Positions 1 to 6,600 of a stretch of DNA of 41,421 nt are shown here, in pieces. The stretch is from positions 1 through 41,421 of the forward strand of contig CALQFT020000011.1 of assembly GCA_943329925.2 (NCBI GenBank), written 5' to 3'. Position 1 is the first letter of the stretch, and every line of letters starts with the position of its first letter. The notes beneath the pieces were generated by a model, which had not been told where the DNA came from, did not search any database, and saw nothing but the letters and a program-made list of their open reading frames with translations. This DNA comes from Opitutus sp. GAS368. Its GTDB lineage: Bacteria; Verrucomicrobiota; Verrucomicrobiia; Chthoniobacterales; Chthoniobacteraceae. Made by a program: the position numbers and the translations under genes.

Positions 1-105
1 CGCAAACCGAGCCTGCCCGATGCAGAGCAGCAGCGGGTTTACGACATGTTGGGAATCGACTGGAGGCAGGCATTTGCGGCGGTGAAATCAGAACTGCCGG
101 CATGA
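1..105 (+). CDS. C-terminal fragment of an unidentified protein
   Basis: An open frame enters from the left edge and ends at a TGA at 103-105, giving the last 34 residues of a protein. The tail contains Asp-Met-Leu-Gly-Ile-Asp-Trp and ends in Leu-Pro-Ala. Nothing in it lets me name a family. The gene converges on ahcY. It could be a chance frame, because only 34 codons are visible, but reaching the window edge without a stop and ending before a clear intergenic gap fits a real 3' end. Confidence 0.45.
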   Translation, partial: RKPSLPDAEQQRVYDMLGIDWRQAFAAVKSELPA

Positions 106-234
106 GGGTTTTGTAGTGCCTTTTGGGGGAAACCGCGATTCCACAGGCCTTTCAGGGCGCTGGTAAGAAACTTGGGTTAAAAGAGAGGGTATTAGTGGGC
201 AGGAGGATGCGGCAGTTATTTTACTCATCTGTAC

Positions 235-277
235 TCCCAAAAGAAAGCGGCCGCCTCCCAGAAAGAAGGCGGCCGCT
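235..277 (-). terminator. Rho-independent terminator of the metK-ahcY operon
   Basis: A perfect 11-bp inverted repeat (arms 246-256 and 267-277, GC-rich AGCGGCCGCCT) encloses a 10-nt loop. Read on the minus strand, the stem is followed directly by the T-rich run TTTCTTTT. It lies 44 nt past the ahcY stop codon, as expected for an intrinsic terminator. Read on the plus strand no T-run follows, so it is probably not used by the gene entering from the left. Confidence 0.85.
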
Positions 278-320
278 CCAAGGCTAAAGCGGAATATGCG
301 GTGACGTACCGCAGCTGTTT

Positions 321-1745
321 TTAGTAGCGGTAATGTTCCGGTTTGTACGGACCTTCGGGGGAGACGCCGAGGTACTCTGACTGCTTGGGCGTGAGGGTGG
401 TAAGCTTCACCCCGATCTTGTCCAAGTGCAGACGTGCGACTTCTTCGTCCAACTTTTTGGGCAGCACGTACACGGCTGGCTTGTACAAATCGCGGTTCTT
501 CCAGAGGTCGATCTGCGCGAGGACCTGGTTGGAGAAACTCGCGGACATCACGAAGCTGGGGTGGCCTGTGGCGCAACCCAAGTTTACCAGACGGCCTTCC
601 GCTAGCATGAAAATCTCGTTCCCACTCGGGAACCGGTATTTGTCCACCTGTGGCTTGATGTTGATGCGCTGCACTCCGGGAGCTTCGTTGAGGAGGTCCA
701 CCTGGATTTCGTTGTCGAAATGGCCGATGTTGGCGACGATCGCCTGGTCCTTCATCGCCTTCATGTGTTCCAGAGTGATGACGTCTACGTTGCCTGTGGT
801 GGTAATGTAAATGTCACCCCGGCCCAGCGTTTCTTCGATGGTGGTGACTTCATACCCTTCCATCGCTGCCTGTAGCGCGTTGATCGGATCGACTTCCGTC
901 ACAATCACCCGCGCCCCCTGCCCGCGCAGCGACTGTGCCGAACCTTTGCCGACGTCGCCGTAGCCACAGATGACGGCTACCTTGCCGGAAATCATCACAT
1001 CGATGGCGCGGTTGAGGCCGTCCACCAGCGAGTGGCGGCAGCCGTAGAGGTTGTCGAACTTCGACTTTGTGACGGAATCGTTCACGTTGAACGCCGGAAC
1101 CAGCAGTCTGCTTTGTTCCTGCAGTTTGTAGAGACGGTGCACTCCCGTGGTGGTCTCTTCCGAAACGCCGCGCCATGCCTTGACTACTCCGTGCCAGTGC
1201 AGCGGGTTTTCGCGGTGCATGTCGATGAGCAGATCTTTGATGACCTGTTCTTCCGTGTTGGACGAGGCGCTGTGTACCCATTCATCACCGTTTTCCAACT
1301 CGTACCCTTTGTGGATGAGCAAGGTGACGTCGCCGCCGTCGTCCACGACCATTTCAGGCCCTTGACCGTTGGCGAAGGTGATCGCCTGACGCGTGCACCA
1401 CCAGTATTCTTCGAGGGATTCGCCCTTCCACGCAAAGACAGGGACGCCCGCAGCGGCAATGGCGGCGGCGGCGTGGTCTTGGGTGGAGAAAATGTTGCAG
1501 CTTGCCCAGCGCACCAGAGCGCCAAGGTCCACCAGCGTCTCAATCAAGACGGCCGTCTGGATGGTCATGTGCAAAGAACCGGTAATACGCACGCCAGCCA
1601 GGGGCTTTAGCGGTGCGTACTTTTCCCGGATGGACATGAGTCCGGGCATTTCTTTTTCTGCGATGGTGATTTCCTTGCGGCCCCATTCGGCAAGCGAGAG
1701 GTCGCGGACTTTGAAGTCAGACGTGGGTAGGTTTTGGGTCAACAT
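321..1745 (-). CDS. ahcY: Adenosylhomocysteinase (S-adenosyl-L-homocysteine hydrolase)
   Basis: This 474-residue cytosolic enzyme splits S-adenosylhomocysteine, the product of SAM-dependent methylation, into adenosine and homocysteine. The N-terminal substrate domain contains [16 protein letters not shown] (about 56-71) and [14 protein letters not shown] (82-95). The NAD-binding motif [10 protein letters not shown] is at 261-270, and the C-terminus ends in the family's conserved KPEHYRY, whose lysine and tyrosine contact NAD. Length is normal for the bacterial form. It lies 37 nt downstream of metK on the same strand, so production and removal of SAM products are probably co-transcribed. An operator-like palindrome covers its ATG, which suggests separate local control. 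No good Shine-Dalgarno is visible before the ATG. Confidence 0.98.
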
Positions 1746-1760
1746 AATGGTTATATGATG
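1743..1760. promoter_or_regulatory. Candidate SahR-type operator over the ahcY start codon
   Basis: The plus strand reads CATAAT, six bases, ATGATG. Both half-site spacing and sequence match the palindrome at 3030-3047 (CATCAT, six bases, ATGATG), with one difference in the twelve arm bases. It lies in the 37-nt metK-ahcY gap and includes the ahcY start triplet. The match between two sites flanking one methyl-cycle operon is direct observation. That the neighbouring ArsR-type protein binds both is inference. Confidence 0.55.
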
Positions 1761-1782
1761 GTGGCTGAAGTTGAAGTTGAGA

Positions 1783-2952
1783 TTAGATGGCGGCTTTAAG
1801 CGCCTCGATGCGGTCGGTGCGTTCCCAAGTGATATCGGGATCGTCCTTGCCGAAATGGCCGTAATTAGTAGTTTTCGAGTAGATGGGTCGCAGCAGGTTG
1901 AGTTGACGGACGATTTCCGCCGGTCTGAAGGAGAACACCTCGGAAACCGCGCGTTCGATGCGCTCTTCGTCCACGTGGTTGGTGCCGAAGGTGCTCACGT
2001 GGATGCTTACCGGTTCTGGATGGCCGATGGCGTACGCAAACTGTACTTCGCAGCGGTCCGCCAAGCCGGCCGCCACCACGTTCTTAGCCACGTAACGACC
2101 CATGTACGCCGCCGAGCGGTCCACTTTCGATGGGTCCTTGCCCGAAAACGCGCCGCCGCCATGCCGGCCCATGCCGCCGTAAGAATCGACGATGATTTTG
2201 CGGCCGGTTAACCCCGTGTCGCCCTGAGGCCCGCCGACCACGAAGCGGCCCGTTGGGTTGATCAGAAATTGCGTTTCTGGGCGCAACAGTTCGGCTGGAA
2301 TTTCTTTGCGGATGACTTCTTCGATCAAAAAGGAGCGGATGGTTTCGTGGGAAACCGATTCGGCGTGCTGAGTCGAGATGACCACGTTGGAGATGCCAAT
2401 GATTTTGTGGCCTTCGTAAATGACAGACACCTGCGTTTTGGCGTCGGGCCGTAGCCAATCCACGGCGCGGCTCTTACGCTTGTGGGTCAAGGCGCGACCG
2501 AGGCGGTGGGCAAACATGACGGGTGCTGGCATGAGCTCGGGGGTCTCGTTGCAGGCGAAGCCAAACATGAGCCCCTGATCGCCAGCGCCCTGTTCCGCGG
2601 TATCCTTGCCGTCAGCAGCGCGCGCGTCGACGCCTTGCGCGATATCTGGGGACTGGGCGGTGATGATGTTCATCACGAAAACTTTGTCGGCGTGGAACAC
2701 GTCGTCATCGTGGGTGTAGCCGATTTCGCGGATGCTCTCACGCACCAAGGAGGTGTAGTCGGGCTTTGCCGAGGTCGTGATTTCGCCGCCGACAACCACC
2801 ACATTGCTCTTGGCGTAGACTTCGCAAGCCACACGACTGTTGGGATCCACCGCTAGGCAGGCGTCGAGAATGGCGTCAGAAATGGTATCGCAAACTTTGT
2901 CGGGATGACCTTCGCCGACGGATTCGGAAGAAAAGATGTAAGAGCGAGACAT
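1783..2952 (-). CDS. metK: S-adenosylmethionine synthetase (methionine adenosyltransferase)
   Basis: This 389-residue enzyme makes SAM from methionine and ATP. It has the family signatures: [14 protein letters not shown] near the N-terminus, the hexapeptide-type motif [12 protein letters not shown] near 122-133, and the phosphate-binding [16 protein letters not shown] in the C-terminal half. Length and order match bacterial MetK. It is the first gene of a metK-ahcY operon and is divergent from a SahR-like regulator across a 108-bp gap. That gap is too short and unstructured for a SAM or SAH riboswitch and I see neither. A TTGACC at 3014-3009 on the minus strand could be its -35 element, but the -10 box is not clear. 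Confidence 0.98.
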
Positions 2953-3023
2953 GGGTTAAATGGGTTGCTGAAGCTAGTGCAAATATTTGGCAATGGGCGG
3001 TTTTTGGGTCAACACAGGATACA

Positions 3024-3053
3024 TTGACGCATCATGATGGGATGATGTATAAA
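3024..3053 (+). promoter_or_regulatory. Promoter of the SahR-like gene, apparently leaderless
   Basis: TTGACG (3024-3029) and TATAAA (3048-3053, preceded by TG) form a good sigma-70 type -35/-10 pair with an 18-bp spacer. Transcription would start about 7 nt after the -10 box, essentially at the ATG at 3061-3063. No Shine-Dalgarno precedes that ATG, so the mRNA is probably leaderless. The spacer is filled by the 3030-3047 palindrome, a position where a bound repressor would block RNA polymerase. Confidence 0.6.
3030..3047. promoter_or_regulatory. Candidate SahR-type operator in the metK/sahR divergent region
   Basis: CATCAT, six bases, ATGATG is a perfect 6-6-6 inverted repeat that exactly fills the space between the -35 and -10 boxes of the regulator's promoter. 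ArsR-family dimers typically bind such short palindromes and repress their own genes. The site lies roughly 55-70 bp upstream of where metK transcription might begin, so its effect on metK is less certain than its effect on the regulator. Confidence 0.6.
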
Positions 3054-3060
3054 TCGGGGC

Positions 3061-3990
3061 ATGGCGTCAATCCTCAAATCGCTCCGACTGCTCGCCGACG
3101 ATACCCGCCTGCGCCTTCTCCTCTTGTTGCAACAGGAGGAACTCTCCGTGGCTGAGCTCCAAGAAATCCTCGGGTTGGGGCAGTCCCGTATTTCCTCTCA
3201 TCTGGCTCAGTTGCGGGCGGCGCAGCTGGTTTCAGACCGGCGTGCTGGGAAGAACATTTATTATACTATCAACGCGGAAGGATTCGCTGTGGAAGTCGGA
3301 ACGGTGCTGACGGCGGCTGCCGCAGAGGTAGTCGAGGTGAAGGCCGATACGCGGGGGCTTGAGGTGTTGCGCCGCAAAAGGGCGGATCTTAGCCGGGAAT
3401 ATTTCAATCGTATGGCGGGGCGCTTTGGCCGGACGTACTGCCCCGGGCGCACGTGGCAAGGCGTGGCGCGGATGTTGTTTACGTTGGTGCCTCCGATGGT
3501 GATTGCGGACTTGGGTGCAGGGGAGGGGCATTTGTCCCAGTTGATGGCGGGCAAAGCGCTCCGGGTCATTGCGGTGGATAATTCCGAGAAGATGGTGGAA
3601 TACGGCTCGAGTCTGGCTAAGGAGAACGGGATCACGAATTTGGAATACCGGCTTGGAGACTTAGAAGCCCCTCCGATTGAACCGGGAAGCGTGGACTTGG
3701 CGATGTTGTCACAAGCGCTGCATCATGCAGGGAGTCCGGTGCGGGCGCTGCGGGGAGCGTGCGGGATTTTGCGCCCGGGCGGGCAGGTGGTGATCCTGGA
3801 TTTGTTGGCGCACCAGTTCGAACAGGCGAGGGAGTTGTACGCGGATATTTGGTTGGGTTTTACGGAGGCGGAATTGGTGGGGATGCTGGAGGAGGCAGGC
3901 TTCGAGGAAGCGCGTGCGGAAGTGGTTTCCCGCGACGACCAGAATCCGTTGTTCCAAACGGTGTTGGCCACAGGCCGCAAGCGGAGTTGA
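3061..3990 (+). CDS. ArsR-type HTH regulator fused to a SAM-dependent methyltransferase domain (SahR-like)
   Basis: The 309-residue protein has an ArsR-type winged helix at about 1-75, with the recognition segment ELQEILGLGQSRISSHLAQL at 32-51. It lacks the paired cysteines that metal-sensing ArsR proteins carry in this helix. A class I methyltransferase fold follows: motif I VIADLGAGEG at 147-156, an acidic AVDNS at about 171-175, and LRPGGQVVILDLL near 237-249. SahR proteins of Proteobacteria are ArsR-family regulators of methionine-cycle genes that respond to S-adenosylhomocysteine. Position next to metK-ahcY and the paired palindromes suggest the same role here, with the second domain sensing SAH or SAM. 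That role is inference; an ArsR-methyltransferase with a catalytic job is the alternative. Confidence 0.85.
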   Translation: MASILKSLRLLADDTRLRLLLLLQQEELSVAELQEILGLGQSRISSHLAQLRAAQLVSDRRAGKNIYYTINAEGFAVEVGTVLTAAAAEVVEVKADTRGLEVLRRKRADLSREYFNRMAGRFGRTYCPGRTWQGVARMLFTLVPPMVIADLGAGEGHLSQLMAGKALRVIAVDNSEKMVEYGSSLAKENGITNLEYRLGDLEAPPIEPGSVDLAMLSQALHHAGSPVRALRGACGILRPGGQVVILDLLAHQFEQARELYADIWLGFTEAELVGMLEEAGFEEARAEVVSRDDQNPLFQTVLATGRKRS

Positions 3991-4012
3991 GGCAGCGACC
4001 TCCGCAGGGGCT

Positions 4013-4771
4013 TTAGCGCTGTTGCGCTGGGGAGATGCGCTCCAAACTTTGCATGGGAATCCAGCCGGTTTCGCCAGCGGCGATCTTGACCCGGCTCCAG
4101 CCGCCGCTGGCGTCGAGAATGCAAACCCGGCTTCCAAGGGGAAGGGTGTCAAGGGTGCGGGCGGGATCTGCCGGAGCGGAGCGCAGGGCCACGGAGCGGT
4201 CTCGTATTAGGGCGACGTTTGTTTCTTGAAGGGCGCGCCAAAGCCAGGCCCCGCTCCAGCATGTGGCGAGGACTGCGAGAAGAGCCACCCCTGTGGAGAA
4301 GTGGCGGGATCGCGGTTGGAATAGGGCGGCGAAACTGGCGAAGGCCGCGGTCCAAGCGCAAAGTGCGAGCAGCCAGCGTTCCCGGTTGCGGGTGAAAGCG
4401 GGTTGCAGCCTCAGCCACCAGGGTATCGCCTCAACTTTGGAGCCGAAATTGTTTCTGGCTATTTGAAGGGCTTCTTGGGCTGGACTGTGGCTGGGGTCCA
4501 AACGCAGCGCCCTTTCCCATTCCAACATGGCGCCCGCAGGATCAGCGAGGGCTTCGCGTACTTTGCCGAGATTGTGATGGGTTGCAGCCGAATCGCCGTC
4601 CTTGGCCAAGGAGCGGTTGTAGGCCCGTTCGGCGTCCGCAAATTTGCCTTCATGGAACAAACGGTTGGCATCCTCAAATTCGGAGGCGCCGGCGCCGGCT
4701 GTCCCGAGCAGGCACACCAGAAGCAGTGCGAGAATTTCACGCATGAAATGCCGTGGGGAAAAGGGGCTCAT
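4013..4771 (-). CDS. BatE-like membrane protein with TPR and SH3-like domains
   Basis: This 252-residue protein is the last gene of the Bat operon. It starts with a signal peptide or signal anchor (about 8-28) and two TPR repeats (about 29-105, including a motif starting FEDANRLFHEGKFADAERAY). Two hydrophobic segments follow (about 132-152 and 160-180), then a C-terminal SH3-like segment (about 185-245) containing TLPLGSRVCILDASGGWSRV. The ATG overlaps the batD stop in an ATGA junction, which fixes the start; an ATG nine codons in would shorten the N-terminus. BatE proteins are thought to work with the other Bat proteins at the cytoplasmic membrane, but the biochemical role is unknown. It ends 22 bp from the convergent regulator gene. 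Confidence 0.8.
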   Translation of the reverse strand: MSPFSPRHFMREILALLLVCLLGTAGAGASEFEDANRLFHEGKFADAERAYNRSLAKDGDSAATHHNLGKVREALADPAGAMLEWERALRLDPSHSPAQEALQIARNNFGSKVEAIPWWLRLQPAFTRNRERWLLALCAWTAAFASFAALFQPRSRHFSTGVALLAVLATCWSGAWLWRALQETNVALIRDRSVALRSAPADPARTLDTLPLGSRVCILDASGGWSRVKIAAGETGWIPMQSLERISPAQQR

Positions 4772-6600
4772 GCGAGGAATTTCAAAGTCTCTTGTACCCG
4801 GAGGCGGTCGTTCTCCTTTATGGGGTTTGTGGAGTGTGTACCACTGAAACGGGCAGCGGCGTCCGCTTCAAACAGCCAGCGGACCTCGTCGGCTTGGGCT
4901 GCCGAAAGCAAGAGCGCCTTGATGACGTCCTCTGCGTCAATGGCGGCTTCCGGCTGTCCGGCCCGAGCTGCCGCCTGCAACTGGGCGATGCGAACGGCCT
5001 GTTGGAGAAAAGGTGCCTTGTCCGTTTGACGCGCGAGTTCGTCTTGGAGCTTGCGCGCGAGCTGCTGAAGTGCCCGGCCCGGCCCCTGCTTTGCCCTAAC
5101 ACTGCGTACATACAAAGCGGTGGCCCCGCTCAAAAGCGAGAGGGCTAGCATGCCTTGGAGACCCCAAAACCATGCGGGCGAACGCCAGAACGGGGGCTCT
5201 TGTTTTGTGGGCGAAAAGTCTTCTGAAAGCACCGGTTTTTCCACCGGCTTGGGGGCGGGTTTGGGCGGAGGCGGGGCGGGCTTGGGTTCCGGTACTTTTT
5301 CTGGCTCAGGGCGTTTCCCCCCTTCGACCAGCAGCGGGTTCGCGACGCTGGTTTGCACCTGGTACTTGCCTGTTTCCGGATCGAAAGACGCAAACTCAAA
5401 CTTGGGCGTTTCAGTCTGAGCCTGCTCCGAAACCATGGCGATTCGGAACGTTTTCGTGCCCCGAAAGCCTGATTCCTCGCTTTTAACAAAACTCACCTCT
5501 GCGGGATACACCCGCCAGCCGTCAGCCTGCAGCATGGGAGGGTCCTCGATTCGGCCGAAGTTGCCCTCACCTTCAATCTGGAGGGTCAGGGTTAATGGCT
5601 CGCCGGCTTTGACCTTGGATTGGCTGGGGGTGACATTAAAATGAAAGCGCCCGACGGCCCCTCGGAAAGAGGCGGGCTTGCCCTCGGGTGGAAGCTCTCG
5701 GATATCAACTCGCTGCTCGGCGAGCACGACGCTGCGCTGCTGGAAGGCGGCGGGTTGATTGTCGAAGGGGAAGCCATCGAGAATCGCCCCCAAGGGATTT
5801 GCCGCATTATTATTGCGCTTCTTCGGGGCGGCCATCTGGATGTTGAACGTCAGGGGGCCGAGGGGGACTTTGCCGCTTTTGATGGCCGTCATTACCGTGC
5901 GGAAACTGCAAACGTCGAAGTCGCGGCCCTGTCGGTTTTCTTGGCGCTGCTGGGGTTGCTGGAAGGCCGTTTTGGTGAAGGCGTCGGTTTCAAACTCGGG
6001 CATCCGTTCGATGCGCCACCGGGTATCGGAGGGCACGCCGAGGCGCACATCCACCGGCACGGCTTCTCCCACGTAGGCAAAGTGTCTGGGCAGTTGGATT
6101 TCCGCAAACGGCATTGCTTGGGGCGCAGCTCCGGGTTCCTGTCCAGCATCCAGCACCTTCAACTTCACAGGTTCGGTCTGGTACTTACGCCCGTCCACGG
6201 TGACCTCCACCGACGGCACCTCCAATTCACCCACGCGACCGGGACTCACCAGATACCGATGAGTCAGGGACACGGAAAGCTCCGTGTTCACCAAGCGCAT
6301 CTGTGTGGCTTGGCCGATATATTGCACTTGAGCGCCCTCGATGCGCACCGAGGGAATCTCGGCCACCCGCTGAGAGCCGTTGATGGTGACATGCAGCTGG
6401 ACGGGTTCACCGACGTTCGTCGTTGCCGGTTGCAACGAGGCGCTCACCGAAATTTCGGCGCTCCACAAGCTGTGGCGCGGGTAAACGAGCAGCAACAGGA
6501 GTATGGCCGTGAGCCAACACGCCGACCAGCCCGTGCCGCTTTTGGCCAAAGGGGAAAACCCGGCGGGAAAATTAACTGGCGGCCAGCCTTTTGTTACCAT
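4768..6600 (-). CDS. batD: BatD family protein (oxygen-tolerance/aerotolerance type)
   Basis: The predicted 610-residue protein carries a hydrophobic export segment near 26-40, a long extracytoplasmic region of beta-rich repeats typical of BatD, a Pro/Lys-rich linker (about 445-475), one membrane span (WFWGLQGMLALSLLSGATA) and a cytoplasmic tail of about 100 residues. I start it at the ATG at 6600, which overlaps the end of the preceding gene by 7 nt and has AGGGAG about 12 nt upstream. A GTG at 6651 would add 17 residues. BatD is named after the Bacteroides aerotolerance locus. Context suggests a membrane partner for the VWA proteins BatA and BatB. Confidence 0.88.
   Translation of the reverse strand: MVTKGWPPVNFPAGFSPLAKSGTGWSACWLTAILLLLLVYPRHSLWSAEISVSASLQPATTNVGEPVQLHVTINGSQRVAEIPSVRIEGAQVQYIGQATQMRLVNTELSVSLTHRYLVSPGRVGELEVPSVEVTVDGRKYQTEPVKLKVLDAGQEPGAAPQAMPFAEIQLPRHFAYVGEAVPVDVRLGVPSDTRWRIERMPEFETDAFTKTAFQQPQQRQENRQGRDFDVCSFRTVMTAIKSGKVPLGPLTFNIQMAAPKKRNNNAANPLGAILDGFPFDNQPAAFQQRSVVLAEQRVDIRELPPEGKPASFRGAVGRFHFNVTPSQSKVKAGEPLTLTLQIEGEGNFGRIEDPPMLQADGWRVYPAEVSFVKSEESGFRGTKTFRIAMVSEQAQTETPKFEFASFDPETGKYQVQTSVANPLLVEGGKRPEPEKVPEPKPAPPPPKPAPKPVEKPVLSEDFSPTKQEPPFWRSPAWFWGLQGMLALSLLSGATALYVRSVRAKQGPGRALQQLARKLQDELARQTDKAPFLQQAVRIAQLQAAARAGQPEAAIDAEDVIKALLLSAAQADEVRWLFEADAAARFSGTHSTNPIKENDRLRVQETLKFLA

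What the first reader, a model, noticed from the sequence alone, without database searches (positions are those of the whole stretch)
1743..3990. SahR-like methyl-cycle circuit with two matching operators
The 18-bp sites at 1743-1760 and 3030-3047 share the same 6-6-6 geometry and 11 of 12 arm bases, and flank metK. One covers the ahcY start and the other sits in the divergent promoter of an ArsR-HTH + methyltransferase regulator. A chance match of this quality in a 37-nt gap is unlikely (roughly 1 in 10,000 by a simple base model). SahR control of the methionine cycle is described in Proteobacteria; I know of no description in Verrucomicrobia.
Basis: partly seen in the sequence, partly recalled or inferred. 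Interest (0 to 1): 0.75.

Follow-up and report, generated by a model that had tools for sequence, protein, structure and literature searches.

The report
SahR-type methyl-cycle regulator in Verrucomicrobia
A bacterial gene switch sits beside the genes that make and recycle the cell's methyl donor, and the same DNA docking site turns up in front of those genes in many related bacteria, so the switch very probably controls the methyl cycle; this extends a control system described in Proteobacteria to other phyla.

Summary
The finding is half right. The regulator (3061-3990, ArsR HTH plus SAM-methyltransferase domain) and the site at 3030-3047 are real and conserved. The second 'operator' at the ahcY start (1743-1760) is in the sequence, but of 73 metK-ahcY rows only the window matches at <=2 mismatches. 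It precedes the regulator in 24 of 33 family genomes with an orthologue. Away from the regulator, all 7 sites of a strict genome-wide pattern lie before metK, ahcY or metH. ahcY away from metK has its own copy (16 of 16); directly behind metK, as here, it has none (0 of 9). Unlinked metK carries it in 18 of 20 regulator-bearing genomes examined and 0 of 4 without regulator. The own genome has a second copy, before metH. Best reading: a SahR-type, SAH-responsive repressor of itself, metK-ahcY and metH, with an operator layout and regulon (no metF) unlike those described in Proteobacteria. Effector and repression are untested.

The parts
3061..3990 (+). SahR-like regulator: N-terminal ArsR winged helix (about residues 7-75) plus C-terminal class I SAM-methyltransferase domain (about 141-290), motif I DLGAGEG
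   Evidence: Pfam HTH_5 and Methyltransf_31/11/25; NCBIfam HTH_metalloreg; in 31 rows DLGAGEG invariant, in 26 rows invariant but for L151; AlphaFold2 mean pLDDT 84.3
3023..3046 (.). operator: ATTGACGC ATCA|TGAT GGGATGAT, dyad axis between 3034 and 3035; contains ATC-N10-GAT (3031-3046)
   Evidence: 24 of 33 family regulator loci; PWM score 42.6 (itself a training site), null 99.9th percentile 6.9; same element before metK, ahcY, metH elsewhere
3024..3029 (+). -35-like hexamer TTGACG, part of the operator's left arm
   Evidence: TTGAC in 25 of 25 family regulator sites, by construction of the search, but in only 21 of 77 distinct regulator sites of the wider set; promoter role inferred
3048..3053 (+). 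-10-like hexamer TATAAA, 18 nt after the -35-like hexamer and 7 nt before the ATG (regulator mRNA perhaps leaderless)
   Evidence: read from the sequence; inference; not reported by the consensus scan
1783..2952 (-). metK, methionine adenosyltransferase; first gene of the divergent metK-ahcY unit
   Evidence: TIGR01034; operator before metK in 70 of 73 metK-ahcY rows, many of these sites being training sites of the PWM
321..1745 (-). ahcY, adenosylhomocysteinase, 37 nt behind metK; probable operon partner
   Evidence: TIGR00936; operator dichotomy 16 of 16 against 0 of 9 in relatives
   Evidence: 1 of 73 rows matches, the window itself

Best explanation
The gene at 3061-3990 encodes a SahR-type transcription factor. 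It binds one dyad operator (3023-3046) in the gap between itself and metK, and a second copy before metH elsewhere in the genome. Bound there it covers the spacer between the -35-like and -10-like hexamers of its own promoter and lies about 70-95 nt before metK, so it represses itself and the metK-ahcY unit. When S-adenosylhomocysteine builds up, SAH (or a change in the SAM/SAH ratio) fills the methyltransferase-like pocket, the protein leaves the DNA, and MetK, AhcY and MetH are made to remove SAH and remake methionine and SAM. Shown here by comparison: gene identities, conserved operator, its presence before regulator, metK, ahcY and metH, and its absence from metK and metH in most of the few genomes that lack the regulator. 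Inferred: binding by this protein, repression rather than activation, SAH as the signal, the promoter hexamers, metK-ahcY cotranscription.
For: Strict pattern in 40 family genomes: 30 hits (28 distinct sites) in 26 genomes, 0 for the reversed control; 21 sites at the regulator and 7 elsewhere, before metK (2), ahcY (1) or metH (4). A PWM not trained on them finds the element before unlinked metK in 18 of 20 regulator-bearing genomes examined against 0 of 4 lacking it (Fisher p 0.0014), and before ahcY away from metK in 16 of 16 against 0 of 9 ahcY directly behind metK. metH: 26 of 26 loci from genomes with regulator, 1 of 4 without. Own genome: only two sites at <=1 mismatch of a 24-base pattern, this one and metH. 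metF, as an internal negative, 1 of 25. Homologues of 27-32% identity in Sinorhizobium and Rhizobium (before metF) and Leptospira (before ahcY and metH). SAM-motif residues conserved. No Rfam match in 1-5000.
Against: No binding or expression data. 9 of 33 family regulators lack the strict element in 160 nt upstream, and 22 of 109 loci of the wider set have no site above PWM 9 within 300 nt. G031 and G032 have the regulator but no metK site. G024 and G029 have an ahcY site, and G011 a metH site, without a regulator found (completeness 86, 93 and 82%). The four regulator-less genomes of the metK test are one genus, so not independent; the eight Verrucomicrobiales genomes of that test were picked among stand-alone regulators that have the element (L216 and L225, without it, were not tested). 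metH of two regulator-bearing genomes (G022, G036) gave no locus and was not examined. PWM2 was trained partly on metH sites, so its metH scores are circular; PWM1 scores are not. The TTGAC of the promoter reading is kept in only 21 of 77 wider regulator sites. metF, a core SahR target in Proteobacteria, is not a target here. SAH binding is not testable here.
Confidence: 0.82

Rival explanations
1. Same regulon, but the signal is SAM (SamR-like corepression) or the SAM/SAH ratio, not SAH alone.
For: metK is a target in 70 of 73 metK-ahcY rows. PMC4239095 (passages) suggests SAM for the related SamR of Xanthomonadales, whose effector it calls undetermined. The pocket has an intact SAM motif.
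Against: ahcY is the most faithful partner: ahcY away from metK carries its own operator in 16 of 16; nine Acidobacteria-labelled loci and 16 distant Verrucomicrobiota loci have ahcY as the gene next to the regulator (one of the nine, L207, has a metK-like match behind ahcY). The paper ties SAH-responsive regulons to ahcY.
Confidence: 0.2
2. An ArsR-methyltransferase fusion for arsenic: an arsenite-methylating regulator as claimed for ArsRM of Brevundimonas.
For: Same domain order; PMC10190100 (abstract and passages) reports arsenite methylation and own-promoter binding by an ArsR-methyltransferase fusion in a met operon. Weak hit to the arsenite methyltransferase model (56 bits, cut-off 263).
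Against: The only common cysteine column has Cys in 23 of 26 rows (A1) but 12 of 31 (A2). The sites found are before regulator, metK, ahcY and metH; arsenic genes were not searched for.
Confidence: 0.03
3. The site at 1743-1760 is a genuine, lineage-specific second operator giving ahcY extra control.
For: 11 of 12 arm bases match; 4 of 20000 shuffles do as well.
Against: Found in none of the other 72 rows examined, including the nearest relative; lacks the inner ATC-NN-GAT core; PWM -7.6; covers the start codon rather than a promoter.
Confidence: 0.04
4. The conserved element is only a promoter (-35/-10) of the regulator, not an operator.
For: TTGAC and TAT-like hexamers frame it in the family.
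Against: At unlinked metK, metH and separate ahcY the TTGAC is kept in only 2 of 15, 5 of 25 and 1 of 15 distinct sites, and in 21 of 77 wider regulator sites, while the ATC-NN-GAT core stays in most; the element goes with the presence of the regulator.
Confidence: 0.03

Closest known systems
SahR (SAH-responsive ArsR-family regulator, alpha-, delta- and some gamma-Proteobacteria)
   Same: Homologues beside methyl-cycle genes; core targets sahR, ahcY, metK, metH (PMC4239095, passages); an ATC-N10-GAT unit inside the operator in most sites. Homologous loci fetched here: Sinorhizobium and Rhizobium regulator-metF, Novosphingobium regulator-metF-homocysteine methyltransferase-metH.
   Different: About 30% identity. 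Operator spans 24 bp around an ATC-NN-GAT core, against a 20-bp palindrome in print; the three rhizobial sites seen here read ACATAAAnATATCTTTATrT. metF is not a target (1 of 25). Divergent metK-ahcY arrangement. The Desulfovibrio protein was not compared.
SamR (Xanthomonadales)
   Same: SahR homologue with a 24-bp palindrome sharing ATC-N10-GAT (PMC4239095, passages); metK a target.
   Different: SAM-cycle genes other than metK are reported absent from the SamR regulon; here ahcY is central. Sequence not compared here.
ArsR-methyltransferase of Leptospira interrogans (L242)
   Same: Regulator followed by ahcY and, one small gene later, metH; palindrome ATATCAAGAT|ATCTTGATAT.
   Different: 27.5% identity; same-strand arrangement; 20-bp palindrome with other spacing.
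ArsRM of Brevundimonas sp. M20 (PMC10190100)
   Same: ArsR plus methyltransferase, in a met operon, binds its own promoter (abstract and passages).
   Different: Palindrome CTTTATATAAAG; authors assign arsenite methylation; not compared by sequence here.

Membership tests
SahR | ArsR HTH fused to a SAM-methyltransferase-like domain | tested here: met
   Pfam HTH_5 and Methyltransf_31/11/25; similarity to rhizobial homologues over residues 35-281 or so. That SahR has this architecture is read from those homologues and from memory; the Desulfovibrio protein was not compared.
SahR | Core regulon sahR, ahcY, metK, metH | tested here: met
   Sites before regulator, metK, separate ahcY and metH; comparative evidence only
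SahR | metF in the core regulon (as in Proteobacteria) | tested here: not met
   1 of 25 metF loci has a site (three of the 25 are from genomes without regulator); no metF hit in the window's genome
SahR | 20-bp palindromic operator, ATC-N10-GAT shared with SamR | tested here: inconclusive
   An ATC-N10-GAT unit is present in 139 of 155 distinct sites, summed over the five groups, but inside a wider 24-bp dyad with its own inner core
SahR | Autoregulation | tested here: met
   Element within 60 nt of the regulator start in 24 of 33 family loci, also where the regulator is away from metK (L049, L051, L052, L055); comparative evidence only
SahR | SAH releases the protein from DNA | not testable with these tools
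   needs purified protein; SAM/SAH motif residues are conserved
SahR | Orthology: one clade with proteobacterial SahR against other ArsR-methyltransferases | tested here: inconclusive
   Midpoint-rooted tree of 65 rows, six alphaproteobacterial, no Desulfovibrio and no outgroup; Leptospira and Novosphingobium rows have long branches
Metal-sensing ArsR/SmtB | conserved metal-binding cysteines | tested here: not met
   no invariant Cys; best column 23 of 26 (A1) and 12 of 31 (A2); other metal ligands not examined
SAM/SAH riboswitch control | Rfam match at the locus | tested here: not met
   0 gathering matches in window 1-5000

The most novel reading that the evidence does not exclude
The operator is a composite of two overlapping SahR-type ATC-N10-GAT units offset by 8 bp around one dyad, so that two regulator dimers bind different faces of the DNA cooperatively. 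In the family the regulator's own site has a weakened left unit (ATT in 23 of 23 distinct sites, fitting a -35), while 11 of 15 separate ahcY sites keep both units, which would give graded responses to SAH along the cycle. The same spacing is seen in 9 of 16 loci of a deeply diverged Verrucomicrobiota branch (36-42% identity), so the layout may be older than, or independent of, the proteobacterial 20-bp form.
Probability: 0.3. Interest if true: 0.55.

Novelty: new variant of a known kind. Interest (0 to 1): 0.42.

Why it matters
Methyl-cycle control by SahR is described for Proteobacteria (PMC4239095, passages). The same logic, with a predicted regulon of regulator, metK, ahcY and metH, is found here in the class of the window, and regulator-ahcY pairs in a second deep Verrucomicrobiota branch and in loci labelled Acidobacteria. 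That gives a testable function to proteins that NCBIfam names only 'metalloregulator ArsR/SmtB family transcription factor', and an operator that can be read from sequence alone. A regulator that stays with ahcY while operons are rearranged makes the SAH-sensing hypothesis directly testable outside Proteobacteria.

Tried and rejected
Second operator at 1743-1760: rejected for lack of conservation. Riboswitch: none in 1-5000. Metal or arsenic sensing: no invariant cysteine. metF as a target: not in this family (1 of 25). Covariation of paired columns as proof of an axis: excess over independent columns is at most 0.021 at any axis when all sites are pooled, so the axis choice rests on pairing fraction alone and both axes stay possible. 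A sigma-70 promoter of the regulator is not reported by the consensus scan, because TATAAA lacks the final T that the scan requires. The null was contaminated with real promoters (its 99th percentile is 33.4), so a cleaner null, 2000 stretches downstream of regulators, was used from then on. A strict regular expression for the operator layout in the distant set hit 9 of 20 loci, 0.01 expected by a letter shuffle; all 9 are among the 16 loci of the distant branch, and the 11 misses include the four nearer loci L256, L257, L261 and L262. Whether the 20-bp proteobacterial motif is homologous is not settled; the figure with the published motifs is a supplement that I could not read.
Full report
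1. What is in the window. ahcY (321-1745, -), metK (1783-2952, -) and an ArsR-HTH plus class I methyltransferase protein (3061-3990, +) are confirmed by Pfam and NCBIfam. metK and ahcY share a strand with 37 nt between them; the regulator is divergent from metK across 108 nt. No Rfam family reaches its gathering score in 1-5000. The window is contig C11 of a 3.8-Mb genome.

2. Conservation splits the two sites. A full-length orthologue of the regulator is found in 33 of 40 family genomes; the seven without are G005, G011, G024, G028, G029, G030 and G033. In 21 of the 33, metK lies divergent within 400 nt. ATTGAC-n2-ATC is found within 160 nt upstream of the regulator in 24 of 33 (25 sites), starting 38 nt before the regulator's ATG in the window; it includes cases where the regulator is not beside metK (L049, L051, L052, L055). 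In the wider set (L126-L234, some of them the same genomes as in the family set) 87 of 109 loci have a site above PWM 9 within 300 nt upstream. The ahcY-start site is missing even from L033, whose AhcY is 97% identical. Over 73 metK-ahcY rows (11 duplicated between collections), only the window has <=2 mismatches to CATCATN6ATGATG near the ahcY start; one row (L134) has a PWM score above 7 there; 70 rows have a score above 7 before metK, many of those sites being training sites. The three misses are L134 and one genome counted twice (L050, L170), where the locus is cut inside metK; the full metK upstream of that genome has the site (L263).

3. The operator. There is next to no covariation beyond column composition at any axis. 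The inner ATC-NN-GAT is found in most sites of every group. A right-hand ATC-N10-GAT unit is present in 20/23, 70/77, 18/25, 14/15 and 13/15 distinct sites (regulator in the family, regulator in the wider set, metH, unlinked metK, separate ahcY); a left-hand unit in 0/23, 17/77, 7/25, 2/15 and 12/15. ATC-N10-GAT is the consensus printed as common to SahR and SamR (PMC4239095, passages). In the window TTGACG (3024-3029) and TATAAA (3048-3053), 18 nt apart, frame the core, and the ATG follows 7 nt after the second; a leaderless message is inferred. TTGAC is kept in only 21 of 77 wider regulator sites, and the consensus scan does not list this promoter.

4. The regulon. (a) The strict 25-base pattern over the 40 family genomes gives 30 hits, 28 distinct sites, in 26 genomes; the reversed pattern gives none. 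21 sites are at the regulator. The other seven lie before metK (G017, G022), ahcY (G017) and metH (G004, G025, G026, G027). (b) A PWM from 126 sites, not trained on unlinked metK or separate ahcY, was scored against 2000 control stretches (median -18.9, 99.9th percentile 6.9, largest 30.6). Of 12 family genomes with regulator but unlinked metK, 10 have the site (not G031, G032). Eight Verrucomicrobiales genomes, picked from the named set among stand-alone regulators with the element, have it at metK in 8 of 8. Of 4 genomes without regulator, 0 have it (18 of 20 against 0 of 4, Fisher p 0.0014; the four are one genus). Second metK copies in G034 and G036 and three distant paralogues have none. 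(c) ahcY: 28 loci, 3 at contig edges, 25 scored. All 16 ahcY that lie on another contig than metK or kilobases from it have their own site; none of the 9 directly behind metK does. Two of the 16 (G024, G029) are in genomes where no regulator was found, which counts against. (d) metH: 32 of 40 genomes have a hit and 30 loci were given (G022 and G036 not); 26 of 26 from genomes with regulator have the site; of 4 without, G011 has it and G028, G029 and G033 do not. PWM2 had metH sites in training; the PWM from regulator sites alone gives the same split. (e) metF: 1 of 25 loci from 24 genomes. (f) In 12 genomes of the window's genus a 24-base pattern with <=1 mismatch finds regulator and metH sites only; the control finds 0. 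G000 shows three places, two of which are the overlapping ends (149 identical bases) of contigs C16 and C138 before metH. The G005 place gave no tblastn hit for metH; I call it metH by eye, because the contig end resembles the metH start of G000.

5. Breadth. In 387 genomes drawn from the phylum, 136 have the regulator at E <= 1e-60. Nine of the 80, labelled Acidobacteria or Bryobacterales, carry the regulator divergent from ahcY at 68-106 nt (9 of 9); they nest inside the Verrucomicrobiota set in the tree, which suggests transfer, though MAG labels may err. Sixteen loci of a distant Verrucomicrobiota branch (36-42% identity) have the regulator directly before ahcY on the same strand, several with sites such as ATCCTTTTATCCGGAAATTCGGAT, the same ATC/ATC/GA/GAT spacing; the strict expression hits 9 of these 16, 0 of 4 nearer loci, 0.01 expected in all.

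6. Relation to SahR. Homologues in the plasmid and chromid collection sit in regulator-metF (Sinorhizobium 32%, Rhizobium 29%), regulator-metF-metH with one gene between (Novosphingobium, 34% over 45% of the query) and regulator-ahcY-metH with one small gene between (Leptospira, 27.5%). Their upstream palindromes, ACATAAAnATATCTTTATrT in three rhizobial loci and ATATCAAGATATCTTGATAT in Leptospira, are 20 bp without the wider layout seen here; for Methylobacterium no such palindrome was found because the gene start was not settled. [quoted passage not shown] I saw nothing of that Desulfovibrio paper itself. The tree cannot settle orthology: no outgroup, no Desulfovibrio, long branches.

7. The sensor domain. 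DLGAGEG is invariant in 31 rows and, but for one near-invariant position, in 26 rows; D173 is invariant in both. The AlphaFold2 model (mean pLDDT 84.3, pTM 0.75) has the helices and strands expected of a winged helix and a Rossmann methyltransferase. The best Foldseek matches are Rv2258c structures, among them an SAH complex (TM-score 0.46, so not a whole-chain match), and YcgJ. By sequence, 56 PDB sequences match, each over one of the two domains. SAH as ligand is inferred from family knowledge and target choice.

8. Verdict. One conserved operator, not two; a predicted regulon of regulator, metK-ahcY and metH; SahR-type logic with its own operator layout and without metF. No paper describing SahR control in Verrucomicrobia was seen in the searches (20 of 1,934 papers listed; 25 of 59; 20 of 73; 4; 2; 0; 15 of 17; 0); the library is open-access PMC only, and listings are not readings.

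Noticed in passing
window 3048-3061: The -10-like hexamer ends 7 nt before the regulator's ATG and no clear Shine-Dalgarno is seen, also in several relatives; the regulator message may be leaderless.
   Followed up: partly
G000, G006, G007, G008, G012: No metF (methylenetetrahydrofolate reductase) hit at E <= 1e-10 in the window's genome and four genus mates, although metH is present; three other genus mates searched (G010, G013, G015) have one.
   Followed up: no
L193, L196, L207, L210, L218, L224, L229, L230, L232: Nine loci labelled Acidobacteria/Bryobacterales have the regulator divergent from ahcY, most with weaker related sites, and fall inside the Verrucomicrobiota tree: possible transfer.
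   Followed up: partly
L243-L255, L258-L260: A deep Verrucomicrobiota branch of the regulator lies directly before ahcY on the same strand, with a differently worded site of the same spacing in 9 of 16.
   Followed up: partly
L297 (G029), L316 (G024), L102 (G011): Operator-like sites before ahcY or metH in genomes where no regulator was found: assembly gaps or relic sites.
   Followed up: no
L134 (G352): Operator-like site near the ahcY start (PWM 20.0) with only a weak one before metK (7.0): the site may have moved within the operon.
   Followed up: no
L267/L287 (G034), L268/L288 (G036): Two close metK copies per genome, of which only one carries the operator.
   Followed up: no
L053 (G038): Two operator copies in one regulator-metK gap, one near each gene.
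   Followed up: no
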